Assembly: GCA_011033025.1 (NCBI GenBank)
Contig: WFMF01000554.1
Span: forward strand, 44,205 to 108,204
Source: Beroe forskalii
Taxonomy: Eukaryota; Ctenophora; Nuda; Beroida; Beroidae
DNA length: 64,000 nucleotides
Direction of reading: 5' to 3'
Shown here: positions 5,440-62,117 of the stretch, one piece after another
Position numbering within the stretch: position 1 is the stretch's first letter
Layout of the letters: each line of letters begins with the position of its first letter
Position numbers and translations under genes: made by a program
Notes under the pieces: model-generated
What the model was told of the DNA's origin: nothing
Database searches by the model: none
The model's input: only the letters and a program-made list of their open reading frames with translations

Positions 5440-7494
5440 ATTGGTTAGTGTTATTGATAGGGCTCTTGTTAGGAGTAATGGTTAGGAGTTATAGGTTTGG
5501 GGTTTATGGTTGGGTTATGGTTAGGGTTATGGTTAGGGTTATATAGTTAGAGGTTATGGTTAGGTTATGGTTAAGATTTTGGAAAGATTTATGGTTAGGG
5601 TTATGGTTAGGGTTATGGTTAGGTTTTGGGTTATGGATTTAGGGTTATAGTTAGGAATGCTTATTAGGAGTTGCTAGTTATGGTTATAATTGGGTTTATG
5701 GTAGAGGGAGTTATGGTTATAGTTATGGATTTATGGTTACGGTTGGGTTATAGTTAGGATTATTACTAGGGGTTATAGGTAGGGTTATGGTTAGGGTTTT
5801 GGTTGGGGTTAGGGTGATGGTTATGGTTAAGGTTAGGGTTAGCGTTATGGTTAGGGTTATGGTTTGAATTATGGTTACGTTTATGGGTATGGATGTGGTT
5901 ACGGTTATGGTTAGGGTTATGGTCATGGCAAGGGATATACTTAGGGTTATTGTTGGGGATATGGTTATAGATATTAGCTAAGATTATGGTTGGGATTACA
6001 GTGAGGTTTATGGTTAGGGTTAGGGTCATGGCTAGGGTTATGGTTAGGGTCATGGATACTGTTATGATTATGGTGAGGGTTATTGTTAGGGTATTGGTCA
6101 AGGCTATGGTTAGGGTTAGGGAGTTAGGGATGTAGTTATTAGTTAAGGTTAAGGTTGGGGTTATGGTTAGGGTTATGGTTGGGGTTATGGTTAGAGTTAT
6201 GGTAAGGGTTATGGTTAGGGTTATGGTCATGGCAAGGGATATGGTTAGGGTTATGGTTAGGGATATGGTTAGAGTAATTAGCTAAGATTATGGTTGTGGT
6301 TACGGTTAGGTTTATGGTTAGTGTTATGGTTAGGCAAGGTAATGGTTAGGGTTATGGGTAGGGTTATGGTTAAGGTCATATTTAGGGTTTATGAATAGGG
6401 TTATGGTAAGGGTTATGGTTAGGATCATGGTTAGGGTTATGGTTACAGTTATGGTTATGGTTAGGATTATGGTTAGGATTATGGTTAGGGTTATGGTTAG
6501 GGTTATGGTTAGGGTAATGGTCATGGCAAGGGATACGGTTAGGGTTATGGTTAGGGATATGGTTGTAGTTATTAGCTAAGGTTTTGGTTGGGGTTAGGTT
6601 ATGGTTAGGGTCATGGTAGGGTTTTGGTAAGGGTTAGGGTCATGGTTAGGGTTATGATAAGGGTTATGGATTGGGTAATGGTCATGGATAGGGATATGGT
6701 TAGGGTTATGGTTAGGGATATGGTTATAGTTATTAGCTAAGGTTTTGGTTGGGGTTAAGTTATGGTTAGGGTCGTGGTAGGGTTTTTGTTAGGGTTAGGG
6801 TTATGGCGAGTGTTAGGTATAGGGTTAAGGTTATGGTCAATGGATAGGATTATGGTTACGTTTATAGTTAGCGTTTTGATTATGTTTATGGTTAGGGTTA
6901 TCGTTAGGGTTATGGATAGGGTTCTTGTTAGGGTAGGGTTAGGGTCAAGGTTAGGGTTATGATAAGGGTTATGGATAGGGTTATGGTTATTGAAAGGGAT
7001 ATGGTTAGGGTTATGGTTAGGGATATGGTTATAGTTATTAGCTAAGGTTATGGTTTGGGTTAGGTTATTATTAGGGTCATGGTAGAGTTTTGGTTAGGGT
7101 CATGGTTAGGGTTAGGGTAATGGTTAGGGTTATTTTTAATGTTATGGTTGGGGCTATGGTTAAGTTAGGGTTATTTTTATGGTTTTGGTTAGGGTTAGGG
7201 TAGGGTTAAGGTTATGGTTAGGGTTAGGGTTAGAGCTATGATTAGCGTTCTGGTTAGGGTCAAGATTAGGTTTATGGTTAGGGTTACGGATAGGTTATGG
7301 TATGGTTATGGTAAGAGATAGGGTTATGGTTAGGGTATTGGTTACGGTTATGAATAGGGTCATGGCTTGGGTTATGGTTAGGTTTATGGTTAGGGTCAAG
7401 GTTAGGTTTATAATTAGGGTTATGGATAGGGTAATGGTCAGGATTAGGGTTATGGTTAGGGTTATGGTTGGCGTTATGAATAAGGTTATGTCGA
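5440..7494 (+). repeat. Degenerate telomere-like array (TTAGGG/TTATGG)
   Basis: About 2 kb of hexamer-like sequence alternates GGTTAT and GGTTAGGG, with a dominant GGTTAGGGTTAT dodecamer and many single-base variants. Longer higher-order units recur (for example the GGATATGGTTATAGTTATTAGC-type spacer near 6270, 6560, 6720 and 7020). Because units are multiples of six, long open frames appear on both strands with repeating dipeptides; these are not genes. TTAGGG is the ancestral animal telomere repeat, so this may be an interstitial telomere-derived satellite. Confidence 0.9.
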
Positions 7495-10000: not shown

Positions 10001-10608
10001 TAGGGCGTTTCATAATTTCCCAACTAGAGAACTGTATATTGTTCGGGGTCAAAAGCTATCCTTTAGGACATAAAAAATTGACAGGAACAAGTTTCAGACG
10101 GAAAAAATAATTTTAAGCACGTGCACAGGCCACAGCCATATCTACCTGTAAAAATCATGATTTTTGATAAAAAGTTACCCATCTCTTTTTCTGCTTGAGT
10201 GACATATTTCTAAGCCTTCTCATCGTGTTCCTCGGCCCAGAAAATGGGGGTATAGGTCCAAAAAATTTTGACCTACGATCTTCAGAAGCTTAGTTATCAC
10301 CGACTTTCATGCGCCCATATATGGGCATGCGCCTGTTTTTGCTAGCGTATGCCCATATATGGGCATATGAAAATAGGTGATAACTCAACCGAAGGTCATG
10401 AGGTCAAAATTTGGACCTATAAATTTTCCAGGCCGAAAAGGCTACAGAGTATGTCACTCAAGCAGAAAAAAAAAAAAAATCATGATTTTGTCTGAAAATG
10501 GCTTGGTGCCACGTGCTTAAAATTTTTTTCGTCCTGTTCCTGTCAATTTTATGTCCTAAAACTTTTAACAACCCCAGTTCTCTAGTTGGGAAATTATGAA
10601 ACGCCCTA
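10001..10608. mobile_element. hAT-type foldback MITE with 8 bp target duplication
   Basis: The left end is TAGGGCGTTTCATAATTTCC and the right end is its reverse complement. Perfect 8 bp copies of ATGTGTAC flank the element (9993-10000 and 10609-10616). The two arms pair over nearly the whole 608 bp, with a centre around two CCCATATATGGGC palindromes (10313-10360). TAGGG/CAGGG ends with 8 bp duplications are the signature of the hAT superfamily. It has no coding capacity; the minus-strand frame over its right arm is incidental. Confidence 0.9.
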
Positions 10609-10928: not shown

Positions 10929-11244
10929 AGTGCTAGGGTTTTCATCAGGGTTATGGAAGGGTTATGGGTATGGTAATTGTTAGGGTTATGGGTATGGTTT
11001 GGTTTGGGTTATGGTAAGGATTATCGTTAGAGTTATGGTCAGGGTTATTGTTAGCGATATGATGAGGGTTATGGTTAGGGTTATTGATGGTTAGGGTTCA
11101 GGTTAGTGTTAGGGTAATGGGGTAAATTTAGGATTGGGGTCACGGTTGGGGTTAGGGTTTGGGTAAGGGTTGTGGTTAGGGTTGGGGTTAGGGTTGGGAT
11201 TGTGGTAAGGGTTGGGGTAAGGGTTTGAGTTAGTAATTCACCCT
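10929..11244 (+). repeat. Telomere-like arm, left
   Basis: GGTTAGGG/GGTTATGG-type repeats again. The inner part (from about 11093) matches the reverse complement of 12560-12765, sharing the order GGTTCAGGTTAGTGTTAGGG then TAATGGGGT then AGGATTGGGGTCA. The two arms therefore form an inverted repeat around the tRNA-like sequence and the 1.14 kb insertion. Confidence 0.75.
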
Positions 11245-11286
11245 GCTTGTAGTCACACATACAAACTCCGTGATCTGAAAATGAGC

Positions 11287-11360
11287 GGGGCGAGGGGGGC
11301 TTGACCCCACAACCTTCAGATTGCCGGTCAGGTGCTCTAACCAATTGAGCTATCTCCCCC
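11287..11360 (-). repeat. tRNA-derived sequence (SINE head or tRNA pseudogene)
   Basis: Read on the minus strand it starts GGGGGAGATAGCTCAATTGG, giving a good box A (TAGCTCAATTGG) and a D-arm that closes with GAGC. An anticodon-arm-like CCGGCAA loop follows, then a degraded box B (GGGGTCAAGCCCC, one T short of the canonical form). Stem pairing is broken in the anticodon and acceptor arms, so a working tRNA is unlikely. On the same strand about 60 bp of non-tRNA sequence follows, as in a SINE body. Confidence 0.55.
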
Positions 11361-12559: not shown

Positions 12560-12765
12560 CTGCATTGAGTTAGGGTTAATCCGAATCCTAAAAATAACAC
12601 CAACCCTAACCCCAACCCAAACCTTAACCCCAGTCCTAACCCCAAATCTAACCCCAACCCTAACTCCAACCCTAACCTAAACCCTAACCCCAACCCTGAC
12701 CCCAACCCTGACCCCAATCCTAACCCCATTACCCTAACACTAACCTGAACCCTAAACTGACATAA
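12560..12765 (-). repeat. Telomere-like arm, right (CCCTAACC orientation)
   Basis: CCCTAACCCCAACCC-type repeats, the inverted partner of 11093-11244. Confidence 0.75.
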
Positions 12766-12822
12766 CGTGAAATGACAGCAGAAAAAAGAAGGAAGAATAC
12801 AGACTACTAGAGATCAATATTG

Positions 12823-13072
12823 GCGCCTATTGGTGCTAATACTTAAGACATCGCTCAGGACAAAAACCATAATCGGCGCCTCTAGGCGCTTATAGGCGAT
12901 GTATAGGCGCTTTTCGGTGCCTATAGGCGCTGATGACCGCTGATAAATTTAGACTTGTCAGCTATAGGCGCCTATAGGCGCCTATAGGCGCCTAAAAGCT
13001 GTACTGCCTATGCCCTATAGTCGCCGAACCGGCGCTTTTCGGCGCCGAATCAACGTTTTGCATAAATAGGAT
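12823..13072 (+). repeat. GGCGCCTATAGGCGCC-rich half element
   Basis: Dense overlapping GGCGCC and CTATAGGCG palindromes. The segment ends TTTTGCATAAATAGGATTTT and matches, in the same orientation, the right half of the element at 22633-23280. It lies 105 bp upstream of the DUF3987 start codon. Confidence 0.7.
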
Positions 13073-13177
13073 TTTGCCAAATTTGATTACATGTTTCACT
13101 CTGATTTCTTGTTTCGCTCAGAAGTGCTAGAAATATTTTGATTTAATTGCTAAATAGTATTCATTTAGTCATTTATA

Positions 13178-14773
13178 ATGCCACAAGAAGACAATGTGAA
13201 TTACCCTCAACTTTACAAAGAAATGTGGTCCATCCCTCAAGATTTCTCGAGGAGCTTCGTTTCTCCAATTGCACGGTGGATCAAAGTCAATAGCAGAATA
13301 CTGAATGTCCCGGATACATACATCGGGTTTCCTTTTTTAGCACTTGTCTCCCACCTTATGCAATTAACTGAAGTGAACGTAAGAGAGTCACATAGTGAAC
13401 CGATGGTGTTGTTCAGTATTGTAGTCGGAAAGAGCGGTACCAACAAAAGCGCGGCTGTGGAACTTATAAGACGTTTAGCAGATAAGATTACACCCAATAG
13501 TCTATTTGACTGCGGCAGTCTTGAGGGTTTGGCGAGCAAACTCTCTAACAATAATAATACCACACTTTGGCTCAATGACGAGATTCAGCCGTTTTTGGAC
13601 CTCGTTGATAATGGAACCAAGAGTTCAGTTGAGCGGGCAAGGTTTCTTACCCTATTTAATGGTTCCAGTTGGACCAAAACCACAAAAGGTAATGGAGACA
13701 GGTCACTCGATTGTACCCGCTTACAGATTACATCTTTTACTCAGCCCGTTAACTTTTGTGCATTTGCAAAGTCTAAACAGAACCAACAGGAGGGAATGTT
13801 CTCTCGTTTTCTTGTATCATTCCCAGTCGAATCGTATCGATTGTCAAATGAGATATCTGATGCGGTAAGAAAGGTACCATCGTTGTTAAACATGGAAAGC
13901 CTGTTAAACTTGTTATACATGAAATGCAAAAAGGGGGTTAACATAAAGTTGACGAAAGCAGCATTCAAACTTCATTTACAGAATGGAGATAGCTTGACTT
14001 TGTATAGGAGAGAACATAAGTACGAAGATGTGGGTTGTGGCCTTCAAGCCAAAAACGTGTCAATAACTGTTAGAATTGCGGGTATGTTATGTATCTTAAG
14101 GGAGCTCACTAGCATATTACCGTTTAGTCAAGACTCTGGTAATCTGGACAATATTACGAGTGAATCTGAAGATGAGATTAATGATGATGAAGAAAATGAA
14201 TCAGATTCTGACAAGAGTACGTCGGCTGAAGATAGTGAGATCTCAACAGGTTTGAGTAAGGAGAACGAAATCGATACATTTTATGTAAATTGCGCTGACT
14301 ATAGGGGCGCTATGAGAATAACGCAGAGGAGTCTATCCACATCTCAGATTATGGTAAACCATAAACCAACAAAGGTGGAAAGTAAAACGCCCCTCCAAAG
14401 ACCTCCCATCCCAGAACCTCATGAAATGACGTTAGACTTTCTCTATAACAACTACAAAGTCATAACTCAAAATATTCTAAGCAAGGAATCAGTTAAATTA
14501 AGTGAAATTACGCGTAATGGAACATATCCAATTGTTGATTGTGTTCGTGGCCCAGCAGTTGCTCGTAAGTTTGTGGATGGATTGAAGCATGTTGGTCTTG
14601 GTGATATTGAAGGAATTAATCGAAAGGCACATTTCAAAAGAAAGCGGCCACGTAATGAAACAGAGTACAAAGACATTAAAGGGAAATTTGCACGCTTTGA
14701 CGTAAACATCGGGCCTTATAACTTTGCTCATGAAAAAGCTAAATCTCAGAATTCATTTGAATCTCAAGACTGA
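13178..14773 (+). CDS. DUF3987-type P-loop protein, intronless
   Basis: One uninterrupted 531-codon frame. The N-terminal 230 residues have the layout of the DUF3987 family (P-loop proteins related to phage and plasmid primase-helicases). There is a Walker A motif GKSGTNKS at residues 84-91 and a Walker B-like LWLNDE at 130-135. A strand with polar end (ITSFTQP) sits at 184-190, and GMFSRFLVSFP at 206-216 would place an arginine near the nucleotide. A strongly acidic low-complexity insert covers about 320-355, and the C-terminus is basic (HFKRKRPRN near 485). The start chosen is the first ATG; a stop-rich AT sequence precedes it and AATAAA follows the TGA by 40 bp. The function is unknown. 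DUF3987 is mostly known from bacteria, phages and plasmids, so here it may be a domesticated mobile gene or part of an unrecognised element. I am confident of the fold and not of the role. Confidence 0.75.
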   Translation: MPQEDNVNYPQLYKEMWSIPQDFSRSFVSPIARWIKVNSRILNVPDTYIGFPFLALVSHLMQLTEVNVRESHSEPMVLFSIVVGKSGTNKSAAVELIRRLADKITPNSLFDCGSLEGLASKLSNNNNTTLWLNDEIQPFLDLVDNGTKSSVERARFLTLFNGSSWTKTTKGNGDRSLDCTRLQITSFTQPVNFCAFAKSKQNQQEGMFSRFLVSFPVESYRLSNEISDAVRKVPSLLNMESLLNLLYMKCKKGVNIKLTKAAFKLHLQNGDSLTLYRREHKYEDVGCGLQAKNVSITVRIAGMLCILRELTSILPFSQDSGNLDNITSESEDEINDDEENESDSDKSTSAEDSEISTGLSKENEIDTFYVNCADYRGAMRITQRSLSTSQIMVNHKPTKVESKTPLQRPPIPEPHEMTLDFLYNNYKVITQNILSKESVKLSEITRNGTYPIVDCVRGPAVARKFVDGLKHVGLGDIEGINRKAHFKRKRPRNETEYKDIKGKFARFDVNIGPYNFAHEKAKSQNSFESQD

Positions 14774-14812
14774 TCCTGTCTGTTGTTTTCATGGAATTGG
14801 CAGCTTATTGTC

Positions 14813-14818
14813 AATAAA
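14813..14818 (+). promoter_or_regulatory. Poly(A) signal AATAAA of the DUF3987 gene
   Basis: AATAAA 40 bp after the stop codon, in an AT-rich setting, supports a transcribed gene ending here. Confidence 0.55.
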
Positions 14819-15738
14819 GTTAATATGCAGTGTTGAAAACAAATTTTTACGACAGTTATAACAAATAGAAAGTTATTGATTTTGCCCAGGCCCAAGGGGT
14901 CAAAAATCCAATTTGAATAACCATGCGTTTCAGATTTATAGCTAGATTAATAGCTGACCATTTAATTAATTTATTGTGTATTTAGTTATTTATCGGACGT
15001 GCTTTTTTATAAATTATTTGAAGAAAAAGATATTTTATACAAATTCAAAGGTAAAAATGTACTACCTAATCATTCTTGATATTATTGTAAAATTTTATTC
15101 CAACCTAGAATAATGACAAGGAAACTAATTTCGTATACCAAAAAGTTTTTGTGTTCTTATTGTATCAAAAATAATTGTTATTTTGCTTCTAAGGTTATAG
15201 TATTGGAACCGTAAATTCATGATTTTTACATTGAATTGAATTCATATTTCAATTGAAATGAAATCTTTGATGAAATGATTAAATTGATTAATGAATAAAT
15301 TGACATACAAATAAAAATATATGAATTCATACGTTGATAAGTCGGTAAAGATATTTTGTTTACCCCAAATCTCAAGTTCCAAGATTTATAAATTCAAATT
15401 CTTTAAAAATTGCTTATGATTGAAACAAATTAATTAGTAATGTAAAGATGATTTATTAATTTCTTCATTATTACAGTGATTCATGTCATGTATACTGTTG
15501 GACGACAGCGTTAGGACTTGAAATCACCAATTCTCCATCGTACCATCTATGACTGGTTAGTTGAAATCTAGTTTTGAAATCTTACGAGGAGAATCGCCCG
15601 GCTTTATTAGTTTTTAATTTATTTTTTATTTATTGCCCTTATTACTGCAGTTTTCTTATTCAAGAGTAAATGTTGAGACGTATGCAATGTTATTCGTTGA
15701 AAATTTTCTATTTTAAGTCTTATAACTACACCAGTTAC
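14819..15738. other. AT-rich spacer, nothing recognised
   Basis: No reading frame, RNA gene or known repeat was recognised. The spacer ends at the first HINE-like element. Confidence 0.4.
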
Positions 15739-18197
15739 ACCACCAAAACCGTTGGACGGTTGGTCTAGTAACCCTCCGCTGGGATGGATGTGATCAGCCC
15801 ATTTTGTCTCTTTTCAGGTTCCGTTGTCACAGCGTAACCCGCGGGAGGTTACTAGACCAACCGTCCATCGGTTTTGGTGGTGATATCTTGACAGATGTAT
15901 GTAGTTTGAACCCATGTTACTTGCCCAAAGCCAGTTTGGACCCACGTTACTTGCCTTCACGTAGTCCGAACCCACGTTACTAGCCCATACGCCAGTCTAC
16001 CCACGTAACTCACCCTTAGGAAGTCCAAAACTACATTATTCTAACTTGGTATTAATAAAATTGATACATTTCTTAATTTCTACAAATCGACCACGTGAAC
16101 TCACGTGCTGAAATATAGCAACCTGATCTAATTTCACGTGCAATAGTCGCATTTAAACTCATTTAAACGTAATCAATTCGAAAATCCAGTGTAAATATCA
16201 ATATCTTCAAATCCCCTAATTTCTACACAACGTCTGCTTGTACTCACGTGCTGAAATATAGCAACCAGATCTAAGTTCAGGTGCATAAGCAGATAAGCTC
16301 ATTTCAACATAATCGAGTCGAAAATCCTGTGTAAATATTAATTTCTTTGAATCACCTATTTTCTACAGAACGTCCGCGTGTATTCACGTGTTACACTAGT
16401 CCATCGTATATTTCCCATCCCTATTCACGGCGAGACATGGAGAAACCATTATCAGTTCACCATCTGATCACAGACCATCTGATCACAGACCATCTGATCA
16501 CAGACCATCTGATCACAGACTAAAGTGCAAATTTTTGTCAGAAACATAATTTCAATCAATTTGCAGTTCAACATTTAGAAGCCTTGCACGACAACAATGA
16601 TCGACCGATCGCCCTGAAACTCGTTTTATAGTTACGTCTCAAGGTGTGAAAGTACCATAATATCAAAGTAAAACATAATCCAATGAAAACTCTTTGAAAT
16701 GGAGATGTCCAAAGTAACGCAAAATAGCGTTCTATCGCAAAATACGCTATTTTAGTGGTTTTACGCGATTTAGATGACGTCATCACAGCACCCAAATGGG
16801 CTTAAACCAACTTCCCATATAGCCTATAAGACAATTCCGCCTTAGTACAACATACTTTGACCGGTCTCATCTCTAAATAAGTCGCAGTTCTTGAAATCTC
16901 ACTCGTTTAAGTTTTGCCTATTGTAGTAAAGCAGAGAGCCATTAGTACTAAGTAGACTGTACATCACTGGCAGTGTAAAATGACGTCATCATCATAGCAG
17001 TCTGTAGCATGTTAAATACGCGTAACAATACAGTAGAGTGGAGAGCCAGTAGTACTAAGTAGACTGTACATCACTGGCAGTGTAAAATGACGTCATCATC
17101 ATAGCAGTCTGTAGCATGTTAAATACGCGTAACAGCATATGGAATGAATATAACGCACTACGGATACATCGTATAACATTCCACTGTACGTGTTTAGCTA
17201 GACAACAGAATATCTTAAATACCGATGGTACTTAAAAACGAGCCTGAAACATGAGCCCTACCGGCCCTACATAGCACATGAGTTACATATTCCTCTTCAC
17301 CGATAATGCTCCAAGGAGAAGGAGCGTGTAAAGTTCGCATTTCTATATTCAACTCCTTATTCATTGGACAACCGTTGTCACGTGGTTAGTTTACTTCCAT
17401 GCAATTGGCCCAAGACCCAAAGGAGGAGAAGAAGAAGGAGAAGAGGAATTGTAACTACATTTGGGGTTCGTGCACCACACTCAATTACTATTAGTTCATT
17501 ATTGTCACGTGGTGAAGATGCTCTTAGCTGATAGGATCACAGCTGCGGAGGGAGAGAATTGGAGCGGCAGACATATTGGTGTCTAAAGATACTGTTAGTT
17601 TGGCTGTCAATACTTAACGTTTAGGTGTAACTCTGGAATCTAAATTTAAGGGTATTTTTAGCACACACGTGACATTAAACGTGACTGTTCACGTGACCCA
17701 GACGACATGTACAAAAGGGGCGGTCCGGTTTTCCTTACCTTTTGTTTATTGTGTGGCATAGCAGAAGCTTTGTAACTATAAGTGACTTCCGAATGGAACC
17801 GTAACGAACTTTTTAACTATAAGTTAGTTACATAAGGGGAACTTGTTAACTATCAGTTAACTATAAGTTCCCCTCTAAATAAGGGTTTGACGTGGGTTCT
17901 AAACAGATGAAAATGCGGACAAAATTGATTTCAATGAGCTTGGATTCGAATCTGTTAAGCTCATCTTATCTCCGAATCTGAACTTTGTATTAGAAAACCA
18001 TTGTTCTTGAGTTCTTCTTACATTTTGCTGTTATGTGACCTCGACATTAATTTACAATCGCAGAATCTGCAATATTTTTGGATTCATATTAAATCCCATG
18101 TAAATATTTCGTAATTTCGTTACGTTGTACCCCTACCCCCCGTAACAAAATATTTCATCAATGACTTTGTTCAATTTATTGTACGTCCAACTGACTA
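15739..18197 (+). mobile_element. HINE/Helentron-like element, copy A with a different tail
   Basis: The first 1.19 kb matches the heads of the copies at 49094-50774 and 33248-34916. It starts with a 143 bp near-perfect palindrome (15739-15881, arms starting ACCACCAAAACCGTTGGACG), then three ~141 bp tandem units starting TTTCTACA near 16077, 16219 and 16359, then the core with GATGACGTCATCACAG. After about 16920 it leaves the family and continues into a 1.27 kb tail with a doubled 106 bp unit (16934-17134). It ends TACGTCCAACTGACTA. A 15 bp CCATCTGATCACAGA motif is repeated four times at 16461-16519. Confidence 0.75.
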
Positions 18198-18724: not shown

Positions 18725-20805
18725 TATACGTCTGAAATATAGCAACCAGATCAAATTTCAGGTGCATAAGCTCAATTCAACATAATCAAGTCGAAAATCC
18801 CGTGTAAATATCAATTTCTTTGAATCACCTAATTTCTACAGAACGTCCGCGTGAATTTACGTGTTACACTAGTCCATCGTATATTTCCCATCCCTATTCA
18901 CTGCGAGACATGGAGAAACCAATATCAGTTCACCATCGGATCACAGAATAGGACTAAAGTGCAAATTTTTGTCAGAAACATAATTTCAATCAATTTGCAG
19001 TTCAACATTTAGAAGCCTTGCACGACAACAATGATCGACCGATCGCCCTGAAACTCGTTTTATAGCTACGTCTCAAGGTGTGAAAGTACCATAATATCAA
19101 AGTAAAACATAATCCAATGAAAATTCTTTGAGTTGGAGATGTCCAAAGTAACGCAAAATAGCGTTCTATCGCAAAATACGCTATTTTAGTGGTTTTACGC
19201 GATTTAGATGACGTCATCACAGCACCCAAATGGGCTTAAACCAACTTCCCATATAGCCTATAAGACAATTCCGCCTTAGTTCAACATACTTTGACCGGTC
19301 TCATCTCAAAATAAGTCGCAGTTCTTGAAATCTCACTCGTTTAAGTTTTGCCTATTGTAGTAAAGCAGAGAGCCATTAGTACTAAGTAGACTGTACATCA
19401 CTGGCAGTGTAAAATGACGTCATCATCATAGCAGTCTGTAGCATGTTAAATACGCGTAACAATACAGTAGAGTGGAGAGCCAGTAGTACTAAGTAGACTG
19501 TACATCACTGGCAGTGTAAAATGACGTCATCATCATAGCAGTCTGTAGCATGTTAAATACGCGTAACAGCATATGGAATGAATATAACGCACTACGGATA
19601 CATCGTATAACATTCCACTGTACGTGTTTAGCTAGACAACAGAATATCTTAAATACCGATGGTACTTACAAACGAGCCTGAAACATGAGCCCTACCGGCC
19701 CTACATAGCACATGAGTTACACTCCTCTTCACCGATAATGCTCCAAGGAGAAGGAGCGTGTAAGTTCGCATTTCTATATTCAACTCCTTATTCATTGGAC
19801 AACCGTTGTCACGTGGTTAGTTTACTTCCATGCAATTGGCCCAAGACCCAAAGGAGGAGAAGAAGAAGGAGAAGAGGAATTGTAACTACATTTGGGGTTC
19901 GTGTACCACACTCAATTACTATTAGTTCATTACTGTCACGTGGTGAAGATGCTCTTAGCTGATAGGATCACAGCTGCGGAGGGAGAGAATTGGAGCGGCA
20001 GACATATTGGTGTCTAAAGATACTGTTAGTTTGGCTGTCAATACTTAACGTTTAGGTGTAACTCTGGAATCTAAATTTAAGGGTATTTTTAGCACACACG
20101 TGACATTAAACGTGACTGTTCACGTGACCCAGACGACATGTACAAAAGGGGCGGTCCGGAGCCTTTCCTTACCTTTTGTTTATTGTGTGGCATAGCAGAA
20201 GCTTTGTAACTATAAGTGACTTCCGAATGGAACCGTAACGAACTTTTTAACTATAAGTTAGTTACATAAGGGGAACTTGTTAACTATCAGTTAACTATAA
20301 GTTCCCCTCTAAATAAGGGTTTGACGTGGGTTCTAAACAGATGAAAATGCGGACAAAATTGATTTCAATGAGCTTGGATTCGAATCTGTTAAGCTCATCT
20401 TATCTCCGAATCTGAACTTTGTATTAGAAAACCATTGTCTTCAGTTCTTCTTACATTTTACTGTTATGTGCTCTCGACATTAATTTACAATCGGAAAATC
20501 TGCAATATCTTTTGATTCATATTAAATCCCATGGAAATATTTCGTAATTTCGTTGCGTTGTACCCCTGTCCCCTACCCCCGTAACAATCCAATGTCTTAT
20601 CTATAAAGGTGTATGGGTATACTACAAACATAACAAAATACTGAATATCGATTTCCTAATTCAAAGATTAACATAAGAGGCGGAAGAGACTTAACTGTGA
20701 ATTATCAGCGATTACCCTACAGTTGTAAAGTCTCCCTGCCATCTGCGATGTAGGTGTACCATCAGCAGGTGACATTGTTCAATTTATTGTACGTCCAACT
20801 GACTA
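18725..20805 (+). mobile_element. HINE-like element, copy B (head-truncated tandem copy of A)
   Basis: Matches 16250-18197 over its length, including the doubled 106 bp unit (19370-19570) and the same tail ending TACGTCCAACTGACTA. It lacks the terminal palindrome and the first tandem units. It has about 190 bp (roughly 20590-20780) that copy A lacks. The two copies are nearly identical, so the duplication is recent. Confidence 0.75.
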
Positions 20806-22597: not shown

Positions 22598-22632
22598 ATG
22601 CTTATATTATATTGCCCGACTTGGCTAAATAC

Positions 22633-23280
22633 TATATATGCAAAACGCCGATTCAGCGCCGAATCGGCGCCTATAGGCGCCCATAAATTTTTAGGCGCCG
22701 ATCCGCCGCCTTTAGGTGGTACCGCTTTTAGCCGCCTATAGGCGGCGCGGCTATAGTGAACATTTGTCAATTTATTGGCGGTCATCGGCGCCGAAAAGCG
22801 CCTATGCGCCGATCGGCGCTTTTGGCACTTTTCGACCGCCTAAAGTCGCCTACGTTTTTCATCGCCTATCGGCGCCTATAGGCGACGATACTGGTTTTTT
22901 TCCCTAGTGATGTCCTAAGTATCGGCGATTAATGGCAGCGATATTGATTTACAGCAATTTGTGTTTTCCGGCTTCTTGTCGGCGTTCATAGGCGCCGAAG
23001 AATTAAAGCAATAAATTAAATTTGCGACTACGAGTTTTAATAGCTGTGTTTCGGGTCTATAATCGGACAATGACCTAGATTCTTTGGCCTGAATTCTATA
23101 GGCGCCTATCGGCGGTCGAAAAGCGCCGAAAACGCCGACAGACGGTGTATAGGCGTTTATCAGCGCCTATAAGTGCCGATGACCTCCGATAAATTGACCA
23201 AATGTCACTATAGGCGCCTAAAAAAGTTATATGCGCCGATTCGACGCTTGTCGGCCCCGATTCGGCGTTTTGCATATATC
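22633..23280. mobile_element. GGCGCC-rich inverted-repeat element
   Basis: The ends are ATATATGCAAAACGCCGATT on the left and the inverse (ATTCGGCGTTTTGCATATAT) on the right. Both arms are built of GGCGCC, CTATAGGCG and related palindromes. Unique sequence (about 22940-23090) separates them. The right half matches 12823-13072. A long minus-strand frame across the left arm is a by-product of the palindromes. Confidence 0.7.
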
Positions 23281-23623
23281 TATAGGATTTTGCGCCTTAC
23301 CATATCACCATTTTGAATCACATTATTACAGAACTGAGTTCAAGCATATTATTCACCACGCGTAGGCGTTATACCGGTTCTAAAAACGTGTTATTTAGAT
23401 TTTCTCTTATATAATGCACCCTTTCAAGTTATAAATCACTTTTACCATTTCATTTCACTCTTATTTACCTTTTTTATGTTGACTCAGCTGAATTCATCAA
23501 AATCGACCTGAATTTGTTGCAAGAGAATTCGGTGTAGTAGTTTGTCAATTCTTCACCATATGTGAATTCGCTGCAAACTGATATTTGCTGCTAATGTGCT
23601 TGAATTCACAAGAATTCATGGCA

Positions 23624-25760
23624 AATTGAGGCAAACTTCCAAAAATCGTGGATTATGCTTCTTACTCAGAAGTCAAACAAAATATCAAAAAAGTAACGGT
23701 TAACTATTATACTCCTGAGTTACCATTAAAAACTGTATCACATTATTGAATAGCTGAATCACACTACTGAGGAAATAAGTCACACTCCTGAGTAACATAA
23801 TGTTTAATGAGCTACCAACCTATTATCTGTACCATCTCATTGAGTAACCCTTTCATTGTACTGCAATCGTAATGATCATTAAGTCTTCCTTTAGTTATGA
23901 AAATTCACCTAAGAGATTATCACATTGTTAGAGAATTGTTAAAATCTGTGCCCAACAAAGTGCCTCGAAGAGCCGAAGAAATAGTTCTATTGGGATTGAA
24001 GTTGATAGAAGAAGTTCCTTTGGATTTATATGTTAATGAAAGAGATACAGGAAGAATGTATGTCACTATTAAAGAAGACAATAGAATATTTTCATTTACC
24101 AAAGAGTGTGTTGAAATGATTATACACGAAGAAGACCATTTGATGTCAATGTCGCCTTCAAGTGTTTTTCCCTGTATAGCAGTTCCGTGTGAGCTATACT
24201 GTTGTAATTTGTCAATTACAATTCACAATCATCCAGCGGAAAGTGTGTTGTACGACATTTATAGCGCACGAATAATGAAATGTTTTCATGGTATATGTAG
24301 AAAGTGCAAAACATGCTATTATCCAACATACAAAGTCAAGAAAACATCTGAATTTGTAGATGAAAATAGGTCTTACTATTCAAATTTAGATATGTTGATG
24401 GTGACATGTAAAACGGCTTTTACAGAGAGGTTTTTAAATCATATTGACTCCATGGTTTGTATTGGCCATGTTTCATTTGAAAATATTTCTGACATAATCA
24501 ACGACACTCTTGAACTTTTTTCAACATCTAGAGAGTTGAACAAGTACAGATTAGAATGTGCTTGGTTTGTTTTCAAAACCATTAAATACAAGCTAAATTT
24601 TGATGTCTGGCCAAGGAAGACTCACCGGGAATTTGATCTAGAAGAATTTTGCAAATTAAATTATGGATATATAAGAGATGTGATTGATAGAAAATGGATT
24701 CAACATATCTGTGAAGATGAAGGGTGTAAGAGTCGTGCAGTTATATTAGATGGGAATGAAAAACTATACAGGAAGATCTGTAGTTCTCCTAAAGAGCGGA
24801 TTAAAGGCAATAATGGAGAACCTAACATTTTCAAGGGTTGTACAAATTTTCCTATCATAGCTAATAGGTACCGCCAGGGTTCACCTTTATGTGCCACTCA
24901 TGTAGACGGTCAATCTGGTATAACAGATGAACAAGTGGATATTAGGCCCTGCACTCGGGCATATTGTAACAATATGGACGTCATACAGACAACTGCTGAA
25001 AGCTGTAAAAAGCCTGACAATATCAATCGTTTTTTTGATAGGACGGCAGGTATGTTTTATTTTTTTAGGAGCTGTGGGGTCCGATTGACACATCGAGAAA
25101 TGTATAGCAGTGAGGCCATATCCGATGTGTTCATTAACATGATAGATATATTTGGGATAACTCCTAGTAGTGATGAAATATCAGCTGTCATATATGATCG
25201 CGCATGTGACTTAGCACCTTTTCTTGAGCGTTTGGCACGAGAAGGTAATTGTGCTGCTTTAAATTATTCAAAGATTGATATTCTATTAGACAAGTTTCAT
25301 GCTCATCACCATAAAGAAGATGTTTGTGTACTTACTAGCTCGAAATGCAAATTTCATCCAGATCTTCCGAAATTTGTAAATTATAAAAATGTTAATACTC
25401 AGATTGCTGAGCAATCCTTTAATAGCTTGAATCTGCATAAATATAGTACTAGGAAGATGGCACTATGTATAAGATTGATGTATTTTAAATTTATTGACGA
25501 TAGTTTTAATGCTAGAAAGGTAAAGAGATTCCAATCAATGGACACTTCTTAATTTAATGATATATGTTAAATTTATATTAAGACCTGGTCAATAATATAG
25601 TAATATTTATAAAATATTAATTTCACACTTTATTTATATCATATCATACCAACGACAGTGATTATATTTATAACATTAGGTTTGAACTGCATCAACGTAA
25701 TTGATTATAATGTTAAATAAATAATAAGTTTTATTGAAAATAATAAGGGATAGTTTTATC
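23624..25760 (+). mobile_element. KDZ-type transposon, + strand copy
   Basis: From AATTGAGGCAAACTTCC to at least the poly(A)-like AATAAA at 25716-25721. The 5' boundary is set by the point where it and the inverted copy (ending at 28510) stop matching. The right end is not defined. Confidence 0.6.
23897..25552 (+). CDS. KDZ-family transposase (Kyakuja/Dileera/Zisupton type)
   Basis: An uninterrupted 551-codon frame. The N-terminal half has a cysteine cluster (CFHGICRKCKTC at 129-140, then YYPTYKV) of the CxC type that accompanies KDZ transposases. The core shows the expected landmarks in order: DGN near 284-286; a glycine- and cysteine-containing stretch ending in REMYSSEA; YDRACDLAPFLERL near 432-445; LDKFHAHHH followed by cysteines near 463-480; and AEQSFNSL near 503-510. 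The acidic residues in DGN, YDRACDL and AEQ are the likely catalytic ones. The product would cut and join transposon ends. Family members are often longer, so an N-terminal part may be missing or in another exon. The frame is open but activity is not shown. A broken inverted copy lies 1.2 kb downstream. Confidence 0.75.
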   Translation: MKIHLRDYHIVRELLKSVPNKVPRRAEEIVLLGLKLIEEVPLDLYVNERDTGRMYVTIKEDNRIFSFTKECVEMIIHEEDHLMSMSPSSVFPCIAVPCELYCCNLSITIHNHPAESVLYDIYSARIMKCFHGICRKCKTCYYPTYKVKKTSEFVDENRSYYSNLDMLMVTCKTAFTERFLNHIDSMVCIGHVSFENISDIINDTLELFSTSRELNKYRLECAWFVFKTIKYKLNFDVWPRKTHREFDLEEFCKLNYGYIRDVIDRKWIQHICEDEGCKSRAVILDGNEKLYRKICSSPKERIKGNNGEPNIFKGCTNFPIIANRYRQGSPLCATHVDGQSGITDEQVDIRPCTRAYCNNMDVIQTTAESCKKPDNINRFFDRTAGMFYFFRSCGVRLTHREMYSSEAISDVFINMIDIFGITPSSDEISAVIYDRACDLAPFLERLAREGNCAALNYSKIDILLDKFHAHHHKEDVCVLTSSKCKFHPDLPKFVNYKNVNTQIAEQSFNSLNLHKYSTRKMALCIRLMYFKFIDDSFNARKVKRFQSMDTS

Positions 25761-26739: not shown

Positions 26740-27998
26740 GGTATCTAATCAACAAAATTTCTCTTTCCTAGTACAATTCATGTAGAATCAAGCTATTAAT
26801 AACGGACTGCTGAGCAATCTGATTATTCATATTCTTATTATTAGTTTCAAGTTTTTTAAGATCCGGATGAAAGTTACATACATTTCGAGCTATTATGTAA
26901 ACATACATCTACTTCATGATGATGGGCATGAAACATATTTAATAAAAGTTTCAACAAAAGGTGACAAATGGCACGAGCTATCATATATGACTTCTGATGT
27001 ATCATGTATCATCATTCAACACTGCTAGGGGTTAACCCAAATATATCTATCATGTTTAATGTTTATGAGCACATCGGATATAGCTTCACTGCCCTACATT
27101 TGTCGATGTGTCAATTGCACCCAAAAAAATAAAACATACCTGCCATCCTATCAAAAAAAACGATTGATATTGTCAGACTTTTTACAGCTTTCAACAGTTG
27201 GCTGAATGACTTCCATATTGTTACAGTATGCCCGAGTGCAGGGCCTAATATCCACTTGTTCATCTGTTATACCAGATTGACCGTCTACATGAGTGGCTCA
27301 TAAAGGTGAACCCTGGCGGTACCTATTAGCTATGATAGGAAAATTTGTACAACCCTTGAAAATGTTAGGTTCTCCATTATTGCCTTTAATCCGCTCTTTA
27401 GGAGAACTACAGATCTCCTGTATAGCTTTTTCATTGCCGTCTTATATAACTGCATGACTCTTACACACTTTATCTTCACAGATAATATGTTCTATCCATT
27501 TTCTGTCAATCACATATCTTATATATATACTACCTAACTGCTTTAAATAGTGTTTGTACTAGTAATACTCTTTATATTGCTCTAAACCTGTCGTGAAATT
27601 ACTGTAAGGCCATTCAATACAACCTAAATTATGAAGTTTGAAAAAACCTTTCTGTAAAAGCTGTTTTAAATGTCACCATCAACATATCTAAATTTGGAAA
27701 ATGACATCTATTTTTATCTATAAATTAAGATGTTTTTTTGACTTCGTATGTTTGAAAATAGCATGTTTTGCAATTCCTACATATACCACTTCATTAATTA
27801 TGCGCTATAAATATTATACAAAGATACAGCACACTTTCCGCTGAATGATTGTCTATTGTAATTTCCAACAGTATAGCTCACACGGAACTTCATTTATCAA
27901 TCTCAATCGCAATTGAGCCATTTCTTTGGCTCTGCGAGGCTCATTGTTAGGCACAGATTTTAATAGTTCTCGAAAAATGTGATAATGGTGAAATTCAT
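26740..27998 (-). pseudogene. Broken KDZ transposase copy
   Basis: The reverse complement follows the + strand transposase from its start codon region (27998) to near its C-terminus (about 26740). It keeps the cysteine-cluster, EMY-equivalent, YDRAC-equivalent and AEQ-equivalent segments in recognisable but mutated form. Frameshifts and substitutions break the frame throughout. Relative to the intact copy it lacks about 165 bp between two GTTCC motifs near its 5' end. Confidence 0.75.
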
Positions 27999-28510
27999 AT
28001 GTGCAGTTAATATTTTTTTTGCAGTTTCCGAGAAATGTATTGCAATTTGGTTTTATTTTTGCTTAATCGGCGGTGCTTCATACCACCTCTTTTTCAAAAG
28101 CTGTTAGCAGGTTATAAGTTAATAGGTCGGGCATTTTCTACTGGGCAGGGGTCTTTGGGGCTCAGCCCCCAGAAGCCAGAGGTTCTAAACAGTAGTTCTA
28201 TAAAGGAGTGATATATCGATAATTATCACACTGGAGTTTGAGCCACGGGAGGGTAATAATGAGAGTTACTGGGAAGAATAATAAGATTATTCAATGAGAT
28301 GATACAGATAATAGGTTGGTATCTCATTAAACATTATGTTACTCATGAGTGTGACTTGTTTTCTCAGTAGTGTGATTCAGCTATTCAATAATGTGATACA
28401 GTGTGAAATGGTAACTCAGGAGTTTAATAGTTAACCGTTACTTTTTTGATATTTTGTTTGACTTCTGAGTAAGAAGCATAATCCACGATTTTTGGAAGTT
28501 TGCCTCAATT
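27999..28510 (-). mobile_element. 5' flank of the inverted KDZ copy
   Basis: The outer 190 bp (28320-28510) match the + copy's 5' region (23624-23870) in inverse orientation, ending GGAAGTTTGCCTCAATT. Between it and the pseudogene start lies about 270 bp (28010-28280) absent from the + copy, including GGGGCTCAGCCCCCAGAAGC, probably a later insertion. Confidence 0.6.
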
Positions 28511-29690
28511 GACTGTAAAGTCAAATTTTACAGATTTTATGAATGGTCCGACAAGTTAAATCTCTTCTGTCACTTTATTTTATTCAAAAAGGCATTGAAG
28601 AAGGTAAGTAGACTTCAACATCTCTAGAGGATCGGGTCAAAGACACCATGTGTAGAGTACACCTGGTTCTTGGTTATGTTGCGCTCAGAGGTGGGTCTGT
28701 TTCTCCCTCTTCCTTACTCTTGCTAGGCACTGGACATGTGGACCTTCCAGCGGCTCATGCCAACCGCATTACTGGTGCCGGTCAAGTGTTCTTAAGGTTT
28801 GATGTATAAAGAGAGGTTGGGCCTGGGGGCCCACAAGAGTATAGCCCCAGAGTGGGGCTGTGCCTACCTCTAACCGCCGGTGAGGCGGTGGGGGTGAGGG
28901 ATGAGGGTGAGTGAGGATGATGGATGTGGTGGGGAAGGGCAGCTACAGTAGGGAGGATACCTTTACCAATACAATACCGGCTTCATCAGAATGGGCGGAG
29001 AGATGAGTGGATGTTACGTCAACCCCGAATTGTCTGTCTCCTCCTCTGTTCGCTGTAGTCTTTTGGTTTGTAGTGCGAAGTTGACCAATGAGTCCAAACT
29101 GTTGTTGTCAATGATGTCGTTTATCGAGTCATAGTATGTCCCGAGTGTGTTTCCTCTGATCCTCATAAAGGCCGGGCACTGCCCTATGAAATGTGCAACT
29201 GTCTCCTCGGTGTCAGTACAGTAAGGGCAGTTTGGTGTGTCTGCACGTGTTATTCTGTTTAAGTGTTTGTTCAGTCCTATGTGTCCTGTAATGATGGAGA
29301 TGGCTGTTCGGTACCGGATGCTGTTACCCATGCTGTCGTTGAGTGTTTGGAAGACCTTCTGATGGTTTCTAATGATCATGTCTGTGTGGATGTGTTTGTT
29401 GTTACTCCACCTGTCGTGACTAAGGTTGTATACCTTGGTATTGATAGAGTGTTTGATGAATGAGAGGGTTACCAGACTGGTGACAGGGTCACTGCCTTCT
29501 GTTCCAGTCTTGGCGATTTGATCTGCTTTCTCGTTTCCCCAATGTCCAGTATGGGCCTTGATCCATCTAACTTGGACTGTATTGTGCCGTGCCAGTGTAG
29601 TAAGTGAGGTATGACAGTTTGTAACTGACTTCTTAAGTTTTTGCTTATTCTCCATTCACCTAGTTCCTGTATAGACACGGGACTAAAATA
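28511..29690 (-). mobile_element. 5'-truncated LINE with RNase H
   Basis: The 3' part of a non-LTR retrotransposon on the minus strand: the end of ORF2 (29014-29655) and about 500 bp of 3' sequence that runs to the KDZ boundary. Reverse transcriptase and endonuclease are absent. Short 3' fragments are the usual outcome of target-primed reverse transcription. Confidence 0.65.
29014..29655 (-). CDS. LINE ORF2 C-terminus: RNase H and zinc-knuckle
   Basis: 213 open codons. VRWIKAHTGHWGNEKADQIA near residues 29-48 is the C-terminal catalytic part of an RNase H domain (the H-x-G-x-x-GNE-x-AD pattern). CPYCTDTEETVAHFIGQCP near 142-160 is the Cys/His motif that closes ORF2 in Jockey/I-like LINEs. 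The N-terminal half of RNase H, with its first catalytic aspartate, is missing, so this fragment cannot be active. The apparent start codon is internal to the original ORF. Confidence 0.75.
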   Translation of the reverse strand: MENKQKLKKSVTNCHTSLTTLARHNTVQVRWIKAHTGHWGNEKADQIAKTGTEGSDPVTSLVTLSFIKHSINTKVYNLSHDRWSNNKHIHTDMIIRNHQKVFQTLNDSMGNSIRYRTAISIITGHIGLNKHLNRITRADTPNCPYCTDTEETVAHFIGQCPAFMRIRGNTLGTYYDSINDIIDNNSLDSLVNFALQTKRLQRTEEETDNSGLT

Positions 29691-32037: not shown

Positions 32038-32761
32038 CCGCGGATTTGGAACCAAACTGGAACCAATGTCAAGATTTTGTCAAGAAAGTGGAACCACTTG
32101 TCAAAACGTATTTTTTTTTCGGCGATTTGCACTGGAAAATCATTGCCATCGGGTAAATATTGATGCCATGAAAAGTTTTGGGAACTTTCACGTCAAGATG
32201 TAAATATAATTAATGGCCCTGAAATCAATTAGAAGGCCTGATAGGGTCAATTTTGAAATTTGTCGGATTTTCATGAAAATGGTCGGAATCGAAAGATATG
32301 GATAGTGTGAACAATCACTGAAAATATTGGGTCGATTGTGGTCAAAACAGTGCCAAAAACGTGCTTGACAAAATGAAATATTGTTCCTTGAAATTCTTGA
32401 CAAAAAGTGGAACCACTTGTCAAAACGCATTTTGCGGCGATCCACACTTGAGAATTATTGCCATATGGTAGACATTGATGTCATGGGAACTTTCACGTCG
32501 AGATGTAAATATAATGGCCCAGAAATCAATTAGAAGGCCTAATTGGGTCAATTTTGAAATTTGTCGGTTTTTCATGAAAATGGTCGGAATCGAAAGTTAT
32601 GGATGATGTGACCTATCGCTGAAAAGCCGATTGGAGTAAAAAAATGCCAGAAACGTGCTTGACAAATTGACATATTCTCACTCGAAATTCTTGACAAAAA
32701 GTGGAACCATTCGGTAACGCACATGAAATTCCGACTTGACATTTTGGTTCCAAATCCGCGG
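32038..32761. mobile_element. Inverted-repeat element with a doubled ~310 bp core
   Basis: The ends are CCGCGGATTTGGAACCAAA and the perfect inverse TTTGGTTCCAAATCCGCGG. The interior is two direct copies of a roughly 310 bp unit (about 32090-32400 and 32400-32710), each with TCAATTAGAAGGCCT and GTGCTTGACAAA. No transposase is encoded and no certain target duplication was found. Confidence 0.75.
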
Positions 32762-33247: not shown

Positions 33248-34916
33248 ATTCCCGCCCTGGCCAGGGCGGTAACCCCCCGCGTATAGAAAAATAAAAATTT
33301 GAGAGACGTTTCTGGCCAGGCTATATAATAGAGATTTTGGTGTCACAGGGTGTATAATAATAATAATATATAATAATAATAATAATAATAAGAGCTGATA
33401 ATTCGGGACCCAACTTATAAAGCCGAGATCTCAAGAACGGGAAATGGTAGAGCCAGGATCGAGGTCAGGTTTTGTTGATTTAAGATGGGAAAATGTTATA
33501 GGCTATAAGAGAAGTTCTGGTGACGTCATTTTCACGTCACTATGACGTCATCAACTTAACGAAATTTTATTGCTTTTATAGCGAAAATAGGCTATTTTCG
33601 AGCGCATTTTGCACTAGGAAGGAAAGGAGATAGCCGTCTGATTTTTCAGAACGATTTTTAGCAAATTTAAAGAGCTTTCAGAAAATCATATGGATCATTG
33701 GGCTATCTCGATTTTTTATCGAGATATACGCGATTTTCTAAGGTACGGTGAAAAATCAATTTCCAAATTATAGGACAAAACTTCAAACGAATGAGATGTC
33801 AAGAGCTGCGACTTATCTTGAGACGATACCGGTCAAAGTCTGTTGTACTAAGGCGAAATTGTCTTATAGGCTATATGGGAAGTTGGTTTGAGCCTATTTG
33901 GGTGCTGTGATGACGTCATCAAAATCGCGTAAAACCACTAAAATAGCGTATTTTTTGCGATAGAACGCTATTTTGCGCTACTTTGGACATCTCCAACTCA
34001 AAGAGTTTTCATTGGATTATGTTTTACTTTGATCTGCTGGTTTCAGACCTTGAGACTTAGCTATAAAACGAGTTTCAGGGCAATTGGTGGAAGATTGTTG
34101 TCGTGCGAGGCTTCTAAAAATTGAACTGCAAATTGATTGAAATTATGTTTATGACAACAATTTGTACTATAGTCCTATTCTGTGATACGGTGTTGAACTT
34201 ATTATGGTTTCTCCATGTCTCGCAGTGAATATGGACGGGAAATATACGATGGACTAGTAAAGCACGTGAGTTCACGCGGACGTTTTGTAGAAATAAGGGG
34301 ATTTGAAGAAATTGATATTTACGCAGGATTTTCGACTTGATTATGTTGAAATGAGTTTAAATACGACTAATGCACATGAAATTAGATCTGGTTGCCATAT
34401 TTTAACACGTGAGTACACACGGACGTTTTGTAGAAATTAGGAGATTTGAAGAAATTGATATTTACACGTGATTTTCGACTTGGTTACGTTGAAATGAGTT
34501 CAAATTCGACTAATGCACGTGAAATTAGATATGGTTGCTATATTTCAGCACGTGAGTACACACGGACGCTTTGTAGAAATTAAGACATATATCAATTCTA
34601 GTAATTCCAAGTTAGAATAACTTAGTTTTGGACTTCCTCAGGGTGATTTATGTGGGTTAGACTTGCGTGTGGGCTTGTAACGAGGGTTCCGACGTGTGGG
34701 CAAGTTACGTGGGTCCAAAACTGCCTTTGGGCAAGTAACATGGGTTCAAACTACATACATCTGTCAAAGATATCACCACAAAACCGTTGGACGGTTGGTC
34801 TAGTAACCCCCCGCGGGTTTGGATGTGACAACGGAACCTGAAAAGAGACAAAATGGGCTGATCACATCCAAACCAGCGGGGGGTTACTAGACCAACCGTC
34901 CAACGGTTTTGGTGGT
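33248..34916 (-). mobile_element. HINE/Helentron-like element, copy inverted
   Basis: Full-length inverse of the copy at 49094-50774. On the minus strand it starts with the ACCACCAAAACCG palindrome (34774-34916), then has tandem ~143 bp units, the TGACGTCA-containing core and a TTA microsatellite (33358-33392). It ends with the hairpin CCGCCCTGGCCAGGGCGG. No target duplication is seen. Confidence 0.8.
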
Positions 34917-35281
34917 ATCAAAATCATGAATAAGTCAGATGATCAAACTAAAATTGCAGTAGTGATGTCACTTCAGCCTTTCATATTGAATGAGTGATAT
35001 GCCATAAATCTTGAAATGATGAGATTAGGTTTGGGTATGTATGTGTCTTTCCGAAATGATGGGTATGTATGTATCTTTTTCGAAATGATGAGGGAGTAAT
35101 GAGGTAGTATGTATGTATGTTCAAAAAAGGCCGATTTGTGATGAGCTCATTTCTGGATGGCCCCTTATATTCCTGCTCACGTCCGCGTTAGCAGGAATAT
35201 AAAGAGGGTCTTAGGACTATTAACAATACTAGTAGACAACTTTGGTCCATTTTTTGATATGTACCATATTACCTTACACAG
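34917..35281. other. Spacer before the coiled-coil gene
   Basis: Contains GGTATGTATG-type short repeats (35030-35120) and a small palindrome (TATATTCCTGCT with its inverse, 35165-35205). No gene is seen. Confidence 0.4.
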
Positions 35282-35858
35282 GAGAAATGCTGACGCTGGA
35301 GCGATACGAGCTGAAATGGAGGAAGAAATGGCACGAGAAGTGGCCGAATTCGAACGGAAGGTGAGACGATATCTGTAATTCTCGGTTTCGGACTTTAATT
35401 TGTTACCTCCCGGTATCGGCCGACAATTTCATATTCTAATGGTGGAAACATGAATTTACAATTATATAGTTTGCACCTGAATTTGCATCTGTTTTTGAAT
35501 TTTTGCACCTGAATTTGCTGTTTTATGCAGACCCGAAGGTACAGTCCATTATCCAACCCTCCCTTGCGCAGGTAAGAGAGGAGCAGGAAAGAAAGCGGAT
35601 CGAGTATGCCCTGAAAGCTGAAGCAGAACGGCGTCTTCTCGACGAGGAGGAGCGACAGTGGATCATTGCCCTCGCACGGCACCTCTGGAACAAGGGGGTC
35701 AGGATCGAGGGGAACTACCTGAACAGGAACTGGAGATTAGCTCAATCTTCTACTCCTACTTCAACTACCTGCACAGTAACGAACCCTTTAATTCCGATGT
35801 GGATGTGTCGTTCAGGGAGAAACTCAATTACATTGCTGCTAACTTGGATAAGATTTGA
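35282..35858 (+). CDS. Two-exon coiled-coil protein, partial, with a frame break
   Basis: Exon 1 (35282-35360) follows acceptor TTACACAG and ends at AAG|GTGAGA in phase 0. Exon 2 begins in phase 0 after CTTGCGCAG at 35571. Joined, they give a charged helix: IRAEMEEEMAREVAEFERK then VREEQERKRIEYALKAEA and RRLLDEEERQWIIALA. From about 35690 the coding look moves to another frame (ELEISSIFYSYFNYL to LDKI, stop at 35856-35858), so one base is probably lost or gained near 35690, by mutation or sequencing error. An AATAAA lies at 36030. I do not recognise the family; the upstream start is not identified. Confidence 0.45.
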
Positions 35859-50618: not shown

Positions 50619-50656
<38 letters not shown>

Positions 50657-61685: not shown

Positions 61686-62106
61686 CACAACATGAATCAG
61701 TTTCGGACCGAAAGTGCTACGCGCAAATTTTGACCATTTCGCTCATAAAACCAGTTGTGAATGTCCAATCGATACCAAATTTTGCATGGATGCAGTTTGT
61801 GAGATTAGACAGCGTCTGTAAAAATTTGAAGCATTTTCATCTGAAAATGAAGAAAAAATTTCTAAATTAAACTAAATTCAGTTTCGGACCGGAACTGGCA
61901 GTTTCGGTCCGAAACTGAATTAAAATTCTGTTATAGCTTGGTCATTTTTGGATGAAAATGCTTCAGATTTTCACAGACGCTGTCTTATGCCATAAACTGT
62001 GTCCATGCAAATTTTGGTATCGATTGGACTTTCACAAATGGTTTCATGAGTAAAATGGTCAAAATTTTCCGCGCAGCACTTTCGGTCCGAAACTGGTTCA
62101 TGTTGT
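61686..62106. repeat. 421 bp imperfect palindrome with TTTCGGTCCGAAAC
   Basis: The arms pair across the whole length: ACAACATGAATCAGTTTCGG at the left against CCGAAACTGGTTCATGTTGT at the right, then CAATCGATACCAAATTTTGC against its inverse. The centre near 61900 is TTTCGGTCCGAAACTG. Probably a foldback element. Confidence 0.8.
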
Positions 62107-62117
62107 GCACAGTTACG

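What the first reader, a model, noticed from the sequence alone, without database searches (positions are those of the whole stretch)
13178..14773. Intact DUF3987-type P-loop gene in an animal genome
A single 531-codon frame carries Walker A (GKSGTNKS), Walker B-like LWLNDE and GMFSRF in the order typical of DUF3987, a family known chiefly from phages, plasmids and bacteria. It has no introns, an acidic insert, a basic C-terminus and its own AATAAA, and the frame is undamaged although everything around it is transposon debris. It could be a domesticated gene or the motor protein of an undescribed mobile element.
Basis: partly seen in the sequence, partly recalled or inferred. Interest (0 to 1): 0.72.

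Follow-up and report, generated by a model that had tools for sequence, protein, structure and literature searches.

The report
Lone intact DUF3987 gene in animal
An animal-like genome carries one complete, apparently selected gene for a helicase-like ATPase of a family best known from phages and bacterial mobile DNA, with only broken pieces of relatives found elsewhere in that genome.

Summary
Window 13178-14773 (+) is one 531-codon frame, far beyond chance, and a clear DUF3987 protein (PF13148, E 4.7e-21, 75.8 bits, cut-off 27). The contig is animal-like: KH-domain frames, one nearest FUBP2/FUBP1, lie downstream. In the 216-Mb assembly the 2,650-bp island with the gene matches only itself, and PF13148 finds only this gene. 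Three decayed pieces of relatives lie on one other contig. Against them synonymous sites are saturated while 22-27% of nonsynonymous sites differ, which points to long purifying selection. The gene sits between two dispersed repeats, outside both; no inverted ends with target duplication were found. Best reading: a long-resident, single-copy gene captured from a mobile replicon, coding a nuclear helicase-like ATPase. Main rival: the last complete copy of a low-copy, undescribed mobile element. Helicase activity is inferred; both structure predictions failed; no eukaryote collection, expression data or sister species could be examined.

The parts
13178..14773 (+). Intact 531-codon DUF3987 frame
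13427..13450 (+). Walker A-like motif GKSGTNKS (residues 84-91)
   Evidence: N in place of the second consensus G (consensus recalled)
13565..13582 (+). Walker B-like LWLNDE (residues 130-135)
13793..13810 (+). GMFSRF motif (residues 206-211); G, R and F shared with phage proteins gp49 and Loki gp32
14156..14233 (+). Acidic insert (about residues 327-352)
   Evidence: Read
14636..14653 (+). Basic KRKRPR stretch (residues 487-492), possible nuclear localisation signal
   Evidence: Read; function inferred
14813..14818 (+). AATAAA, candidate polyadenylation signal
13086..15735 (.). Single-copy island holding the gene, between two dispersed repeats
   Evidence: one match in 216 Mb, itself
12800..13085 (+). 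Arm of a GGCGCC foldback repeat; its outer end faces the gene (left boundary)
15736..15890 (.). Hairpin end of a high-copy repeat (right boundary)

Best explanation
The frame is a real, single-copy, intronless nuclear gene of this animal. It codes a stand-alone DUF3987 P-loop ATPase that was captured long ago from a mobile replicon and kept by selection. SHOWN: intact frame, DUF3987 membership, single copy in the assembly, old divergence from decayed relatives with amino acids conserved, position outside the flanking repeats. INFERRED: it binds and hydrolyses ATP with Walker A (K90, S91) and the LWLNDE acidic pair; it enters the nucleus by KRKRPR; it moves on or opens DNA, as predicted for DUF3987 in mobile elements; the acidic insert contacts a partner. 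Capture from a mobile replicon is also inferred, from where the family is known. The host process is unknown; DNA replication or repair, or restraint of mobile DNA, is the first guess.
For: Chance excluded; PF13148 E 4.7e-21. Island single copy, family hits only this gene, protein search finds itself and broken pieces. Against the pieces pS is 1.16, 1.10, 1.04 and pN 0.25, 0.22, 0.27 (47, 24, 52 codons), so the lineages are old and were constrained, yet this frame is unbroken. CpG ratio 0.82 against 0.83 for the window and codon usage correlation 0.67 and 0.70 with two other window frames suit a resident sequence. Positive controls: both flanking repeats were found many times by the same search.
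Against: Codon usage correlation with a third frame is only 0.44, and a wrong frame of the same DNA reaches 0.56, so that test is weak. The selection test rests on 24-52 codons picked by protein similarity and could equally reflect selection on two element lineages. The Walker A glycine is replaced. No transcript, orthologue or structure is available (searches failed). Relatives once existed in several copies.
Confidence: 0.5

Rival explanations
1. It is the last complete copy of a low-copy, undescribed eukaryotic mobile element whose replication motor is DUF3987; the integrase or ends are lost or not recognised.
For: DUF3987 is tied to mobile replicons (PMC5862659 passages). Three decayed relatives on one contig, all covering only residues 88-151, two of them seen by the genome search. 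The surroundings are full of repeats.
Against: One copy of the island in 216 Mb; no 12-base inverted ends with a duplication of 4 or more bases; no piece in 16 further 10-kb stretches.
Confidence: 0.3
2. It is a remnant of an integrated DNA virus or virus-like element of eukaryotes that carried a DUF3987 replication gene.
For: The family is a viral replication family in phages; P-loop replication genes are commonly captured (recalled).
Against: No relative in IMG/VR by three scans with this protein or its kin, which find close relatives only; no viral neighbour recognised, though short frames nearby were not scanned.
Confidence: 0.1
3. It is cargo of the KDZ transposon or of the GGCGCC foldback repeat nearby.
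For: A GGCGCC arm lies before both this gene and the KDZ frame at 23897.
Against: The arm's outer end faces the gene, so the gene is outside the repeat. The arms are dispersed while the island is not. The KDZ pair has its own inverted repeats at 23624-23847 and 28287-28510.
Confidence: 0.03
4. It is recent transfer from a bacterium or phage, or assembly contamination.
For: The family is mostly known from prokaryotes and phages (recalled; by titles).
Against: It sits between two repeats dispersed through this assembly; no close relative in phages, plasmids, IMG/VR or GTDB genomes; old relatives in the same assembly; composition as in the window.
Confidence: 0.03

Closest known systems
DUF3987 (PF13148) putative helicases of T1-like phages, e.g. 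Pantoea phage AAS23 gp49
   Same: Stand-alone proteins of about 530 residues with the DUF3987 domain; shared G, R and F of the GMFSRF motif
   Different: 17% identity in a loose alignment; a profile of ten T1-like proteins plus Loki gp32 does not recognise the animal protein (E 0.073, -2.5 bits); acidic insert and KRKRPR seen in the animal protein; animal genome, no phage gene neighbourhood
AEP primase fusions with DUF3987 (PrimQH and All3500 families, PMC5862659 passages)
   Same: DUF3987 domain, predicted there to be a helicase
   Different: Only DUF3987 passed the cut-off in the animal protein; no primase domain
Acinetobacter phage Loki gp32
   Same: DUF3987, E 1.2e-14
   Different: 754 residues, annotated as putative primase; 25% identity in a loose alignment
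PICMI phage satellites (PMC10803314 passages)
   Same: The satellite definition includes a DUF3987 protein, there called primase
   Different: Satellites also need integrase, AlpA and Fis genes; none was recognised in the frames scanned here

Membership tests
DUF3987 (PF13148) | Profile score over the curated cut-off | tested here: met
   75.8 bits against 27; 70.8 bits in the genome search
DUF3987 (PF13148) | P-loop and acidic Walker B-like motif | tested here: met
   GKSGTNKS and LWLNDE; one consensus glycine of Walker A replaced by N
DUF3987 (PF13148) | P-loop ATPase fold | tested here: inconclusive
   Both predictions too poor: mean pLDDT 31.5 and 36.4
Helicase of mobile-element replication | ATP-driven strand separation | not testable with these tools
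   Predicted for the family in PMC5862659; no assay
Transposable element | Several copies in the genome with common ends | tested here: not met
   Island: 1 match of 1 candidate
Transposable element | Inverted ends with target-site duplication | tested here: not met
   0 pairs, and 0 in 6 shuffles; elements without inverted ends are not excluded
Transposable element | Transposase or integrase next to the gene | tested here: inconclusive
   The KDZ frame at 23897 is about 9 kb away; short frames between were not scanned with profiles
Domesticated host gene | Orthologues at the same site under purifying selection | not testable with these tools
   No related animal genome is held; only decayed paralogous pieces could be compared
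Domesticated host gene | Transcription | not testable with these tools
   No RNA data

The most novel reading that the evidence does not exclude
An animal lineage has domesticated a mobile-replicon DUF3987 helicase as a nuclear enzyme of its own, or preserves the motor of an undescribed eukaryotic replicative element whose graves lie on contig C871; either way a eukaryotic branch of DUF3987.
Probability: 0.4. Interest if true: 0.75.

Novelty: new variant of a known kind. Interest (0 to 1): 0.5.

Why it matters
No convincing solved relative was found by sequence. In the open-access library searched, 10 papers hold the word DUF3987 and by title and abstract start they concern bacteria or phages; 1 paper holds PF13148, and it is one of the ten. 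An intact, apparently selected member in an animal would show that this replication ATPase crossed into eukaryotes and was kept, and would give a stand-alone protein on which the predicted helicase activity can be tested. Papers outside that library were not searched, so the gene may be in databases unremarked.

Tried and rejected
Structure prediction alone and with ten phage relatives failed; MAFFT put the Walker A motifs out of register. No structure search was made on these models. tblastn against phages and plasmids gave nothing below E 0.01; with the core at E up to 10, 8 staphylococcal or mammaliicoccal phage records matched at E 0.6 or worse, the annotated ones at resolvases, taken as chance. 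Scans of viral contigs and GTDB genomes found no relative; they reach close relatives only. A scan from phage gp49 and its kin gave 76 loci, nearly all T1-like in identity, too distant to help. GGCGCC repeats as shared promoter or as ends of the gene: rejected. KDZ cargo: rejected. Weak matches taken as chance: TLP-20 in Pfam (E 0.027, under its cut-off) and PNO1 chains (E 0.44 and 0.58). A paper search with six terms, five required, gave 0 papers. The KDZ copy number was asked for and not answered.

Full report
OBSERVATION. Window 13178-14773 (+) reads as one frame of 531 codons (534 between stops). In 40 dinucleotide-preserving shuffles of the window the longest stop-free frame averaged 149 residues, maximum 208. 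The protein matches Pfam DUF3987, PF13148, at E 4.7e-21 with 75.8 bits against a cut-off of 27, and a PHROG called DNA helicase at E 1.3e-8. NCBIfam gives nothing. The sixth place of Walker A is N, not the usual G (consensus recalled). An acidic stretch, a basic KRKRPR and an AATAAA at 14813-14818 are present.

SETTING. The window is the last 64 kb of a 108,204-base contig, C641, of a 216,145,372-base assembly in 1,134 contigs. Frames at 45225-45599 and 46510-46785 carry KH domains (coordinates of typed frames), and a frame at 44143-44421 has FUBP2 and FUBP1 as its best solved matches. That the three are exons of one gene is inferred. So the contig is animal-like; the species is not known to me. 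The gene lies on a 2,650-base island, 13086-15735. On its left is an arm of a GGCGCC-rich foldback repeat. Alignment with the two arms at 22605-23310 shows that the outer end, near 13085, faces the gene, so the gene lies outside the repeat. The arm is dispersed: 246 candidates, 40 of them scored, 130 matches, although 21 other stretches of this genome, 210 kb, held no convincing match. On the right, from 15736, begins a repeat with a hairpin end: 841 candidates; of the 40 scored, the window copy is at 100% and 39 others at 95%. No 12-base inverted ends (at most one mismatch) with a duplication of 4 or more bases surround the gene, and none in 6 shuffles; that test cannot see elements without inverted ends.

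COPIES. The island DNA has one match in the genome, itself. The protein at E up to 10 gives 3 matches from 5 candidates: itself and two broken pieces on contig C871 (at E up to 0.001, 2 matches). The Pfam family gives only this gene, in two stretches scoring 70.8 bits together; among the 14 control genomes of that search it rang in 1, Bacteroides ihuae. The tool scores only its best candidates, so these are lower bounds. tblastn of the parts of C871 that I fetched (all but about 930 bases of 50,923) adds a third broken piece. The three pieces, C871:35155-35307, 32476-32547 and 17421-17578, are on the minus strand and cover parts of residues 88-151 only. Sixteen further 10-kb stretches hold no piece. 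Within the window the protein has no second copy.

SELECTION. Against the three pieces (47, 24 and 52 codons after dropping gap columns and codons that are stops in the piece) differences per synonymous site are 1.16, 1.10 and 1.04, saturated, and per nonsynonymous site 0.25, 0.22 and 0.27. So the lineages parted long ago and kept their amino acids for long before the C871 copies broke. The pieces are short and were found by protein similarity, which biases the nonsynonymous figure down; and selection on two lineages of a mobile element would look the same. DNA of that age without function would not be expected to keep 531 open codons. The CpG ratio is 0.82 against 0.83 for the window. Codon usage correlates at 0.70, 0.67 and 0.44 with three other window frames; out-of-frame readings of the same DNA give 0.36 to 0.56, so this is weak support.

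RELATIVES. No relative was found in phage records, plasmid records, IMG/VR or GTDB genomes; the last two kinds of scan reach close relatives only. AAS23 gp49 and Loki gp32 are DUF3987 proteins but share 17% and 25% identity in a loose alignment. A profile of ten T1-like proteins plus Loki gp32 does not recognise the animal protein, so the T1-like branch, with 919 phage records, is not its close kin. No eukaryote collection could be searched, so how widespread the gene is in animals is open.

MECHANISM. Kazlauskas and colleagues predict that DUF3987 is a helicase of mobile-element replication (PMC5862659, passages only). By that analogy the animal protein would be an ATP-driven DNA motor, nuclear by its basic stretch, with an acidic arm for a partner. 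None of this is shown; the two structure predictions were too poor to use (mean pLDDT 31.5 and 36.4).

VERDICT. A real, single-copy, apparently selected DUF3987 gene in an animal-like genome. Resident gene 0.5, last copy of a low-copy element 0.3, viral remnant 0.1, the rest small. In the library searched, 10 papers hold the word DUF3987 (listing); I saw passages of 4 of them.

Noticed in passing
23897-25552 (+), 26744-27986 (-), 23624-23847 and 28287-28510: Intact 551-codon frame with a CxC5 match (KDZ-transposase associated) opposite a broken copy at about 80% DNA identity, while 224 bases before each are inverted copies at 95.5%. Genome copy number was asked for and not answered.
   Followed up: partly
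22605-23310 and 12800-13095: GGCGCC/TATAGGCGC foldback repeat; arms homologous, dispersed in the genome with 246 candidates.
   Followed up: partly
15736-16921, 33248-34916, 49094-50774: Repeat with a hairpin end; the second and third copies are 97.5% identical; 841 candidates for its end in the genome.
   Followed up: partly
16246-18140 and 18728-20573: Direct duplication of about 1.9 kb at 95% identity.
   Followed up: no
5442-7469, 10947-11233, 12577-12757: Degenerate telomere-like TTAGGG-type arrays inside the contig.
   Followed up: no
11286-11359 (-): Isolated tRNA-family match, 46.6 bits, beside a telomere-like array; perhaps a tRNA-derived SINE.
   Followed up: no
C871:17421-17578, 32476-32547, 35155-35307 (L011, L009): Three decayed DUF3987 pieces on one contig and strand, all limited to parts of residues 88-151; two share similar sequence just after the piece. 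Why this segment alone remains is unexplained.
   Followed up: partly
50904-52310 and 52237-53058 (+): Two long frames, the first with an RRM match over cut-off and the second with a weak one; probably one host gene split by an intron or frame change.
   Followed up: no
29017-29655 (-): RNase H match and a weak zf-RVT match, remnant of a retrotransposon.
   Followed up: no
10001-10608 and 61686-62107: Two imperfect palindromes, 68% and 83% self-complementary.
   Followed up: no
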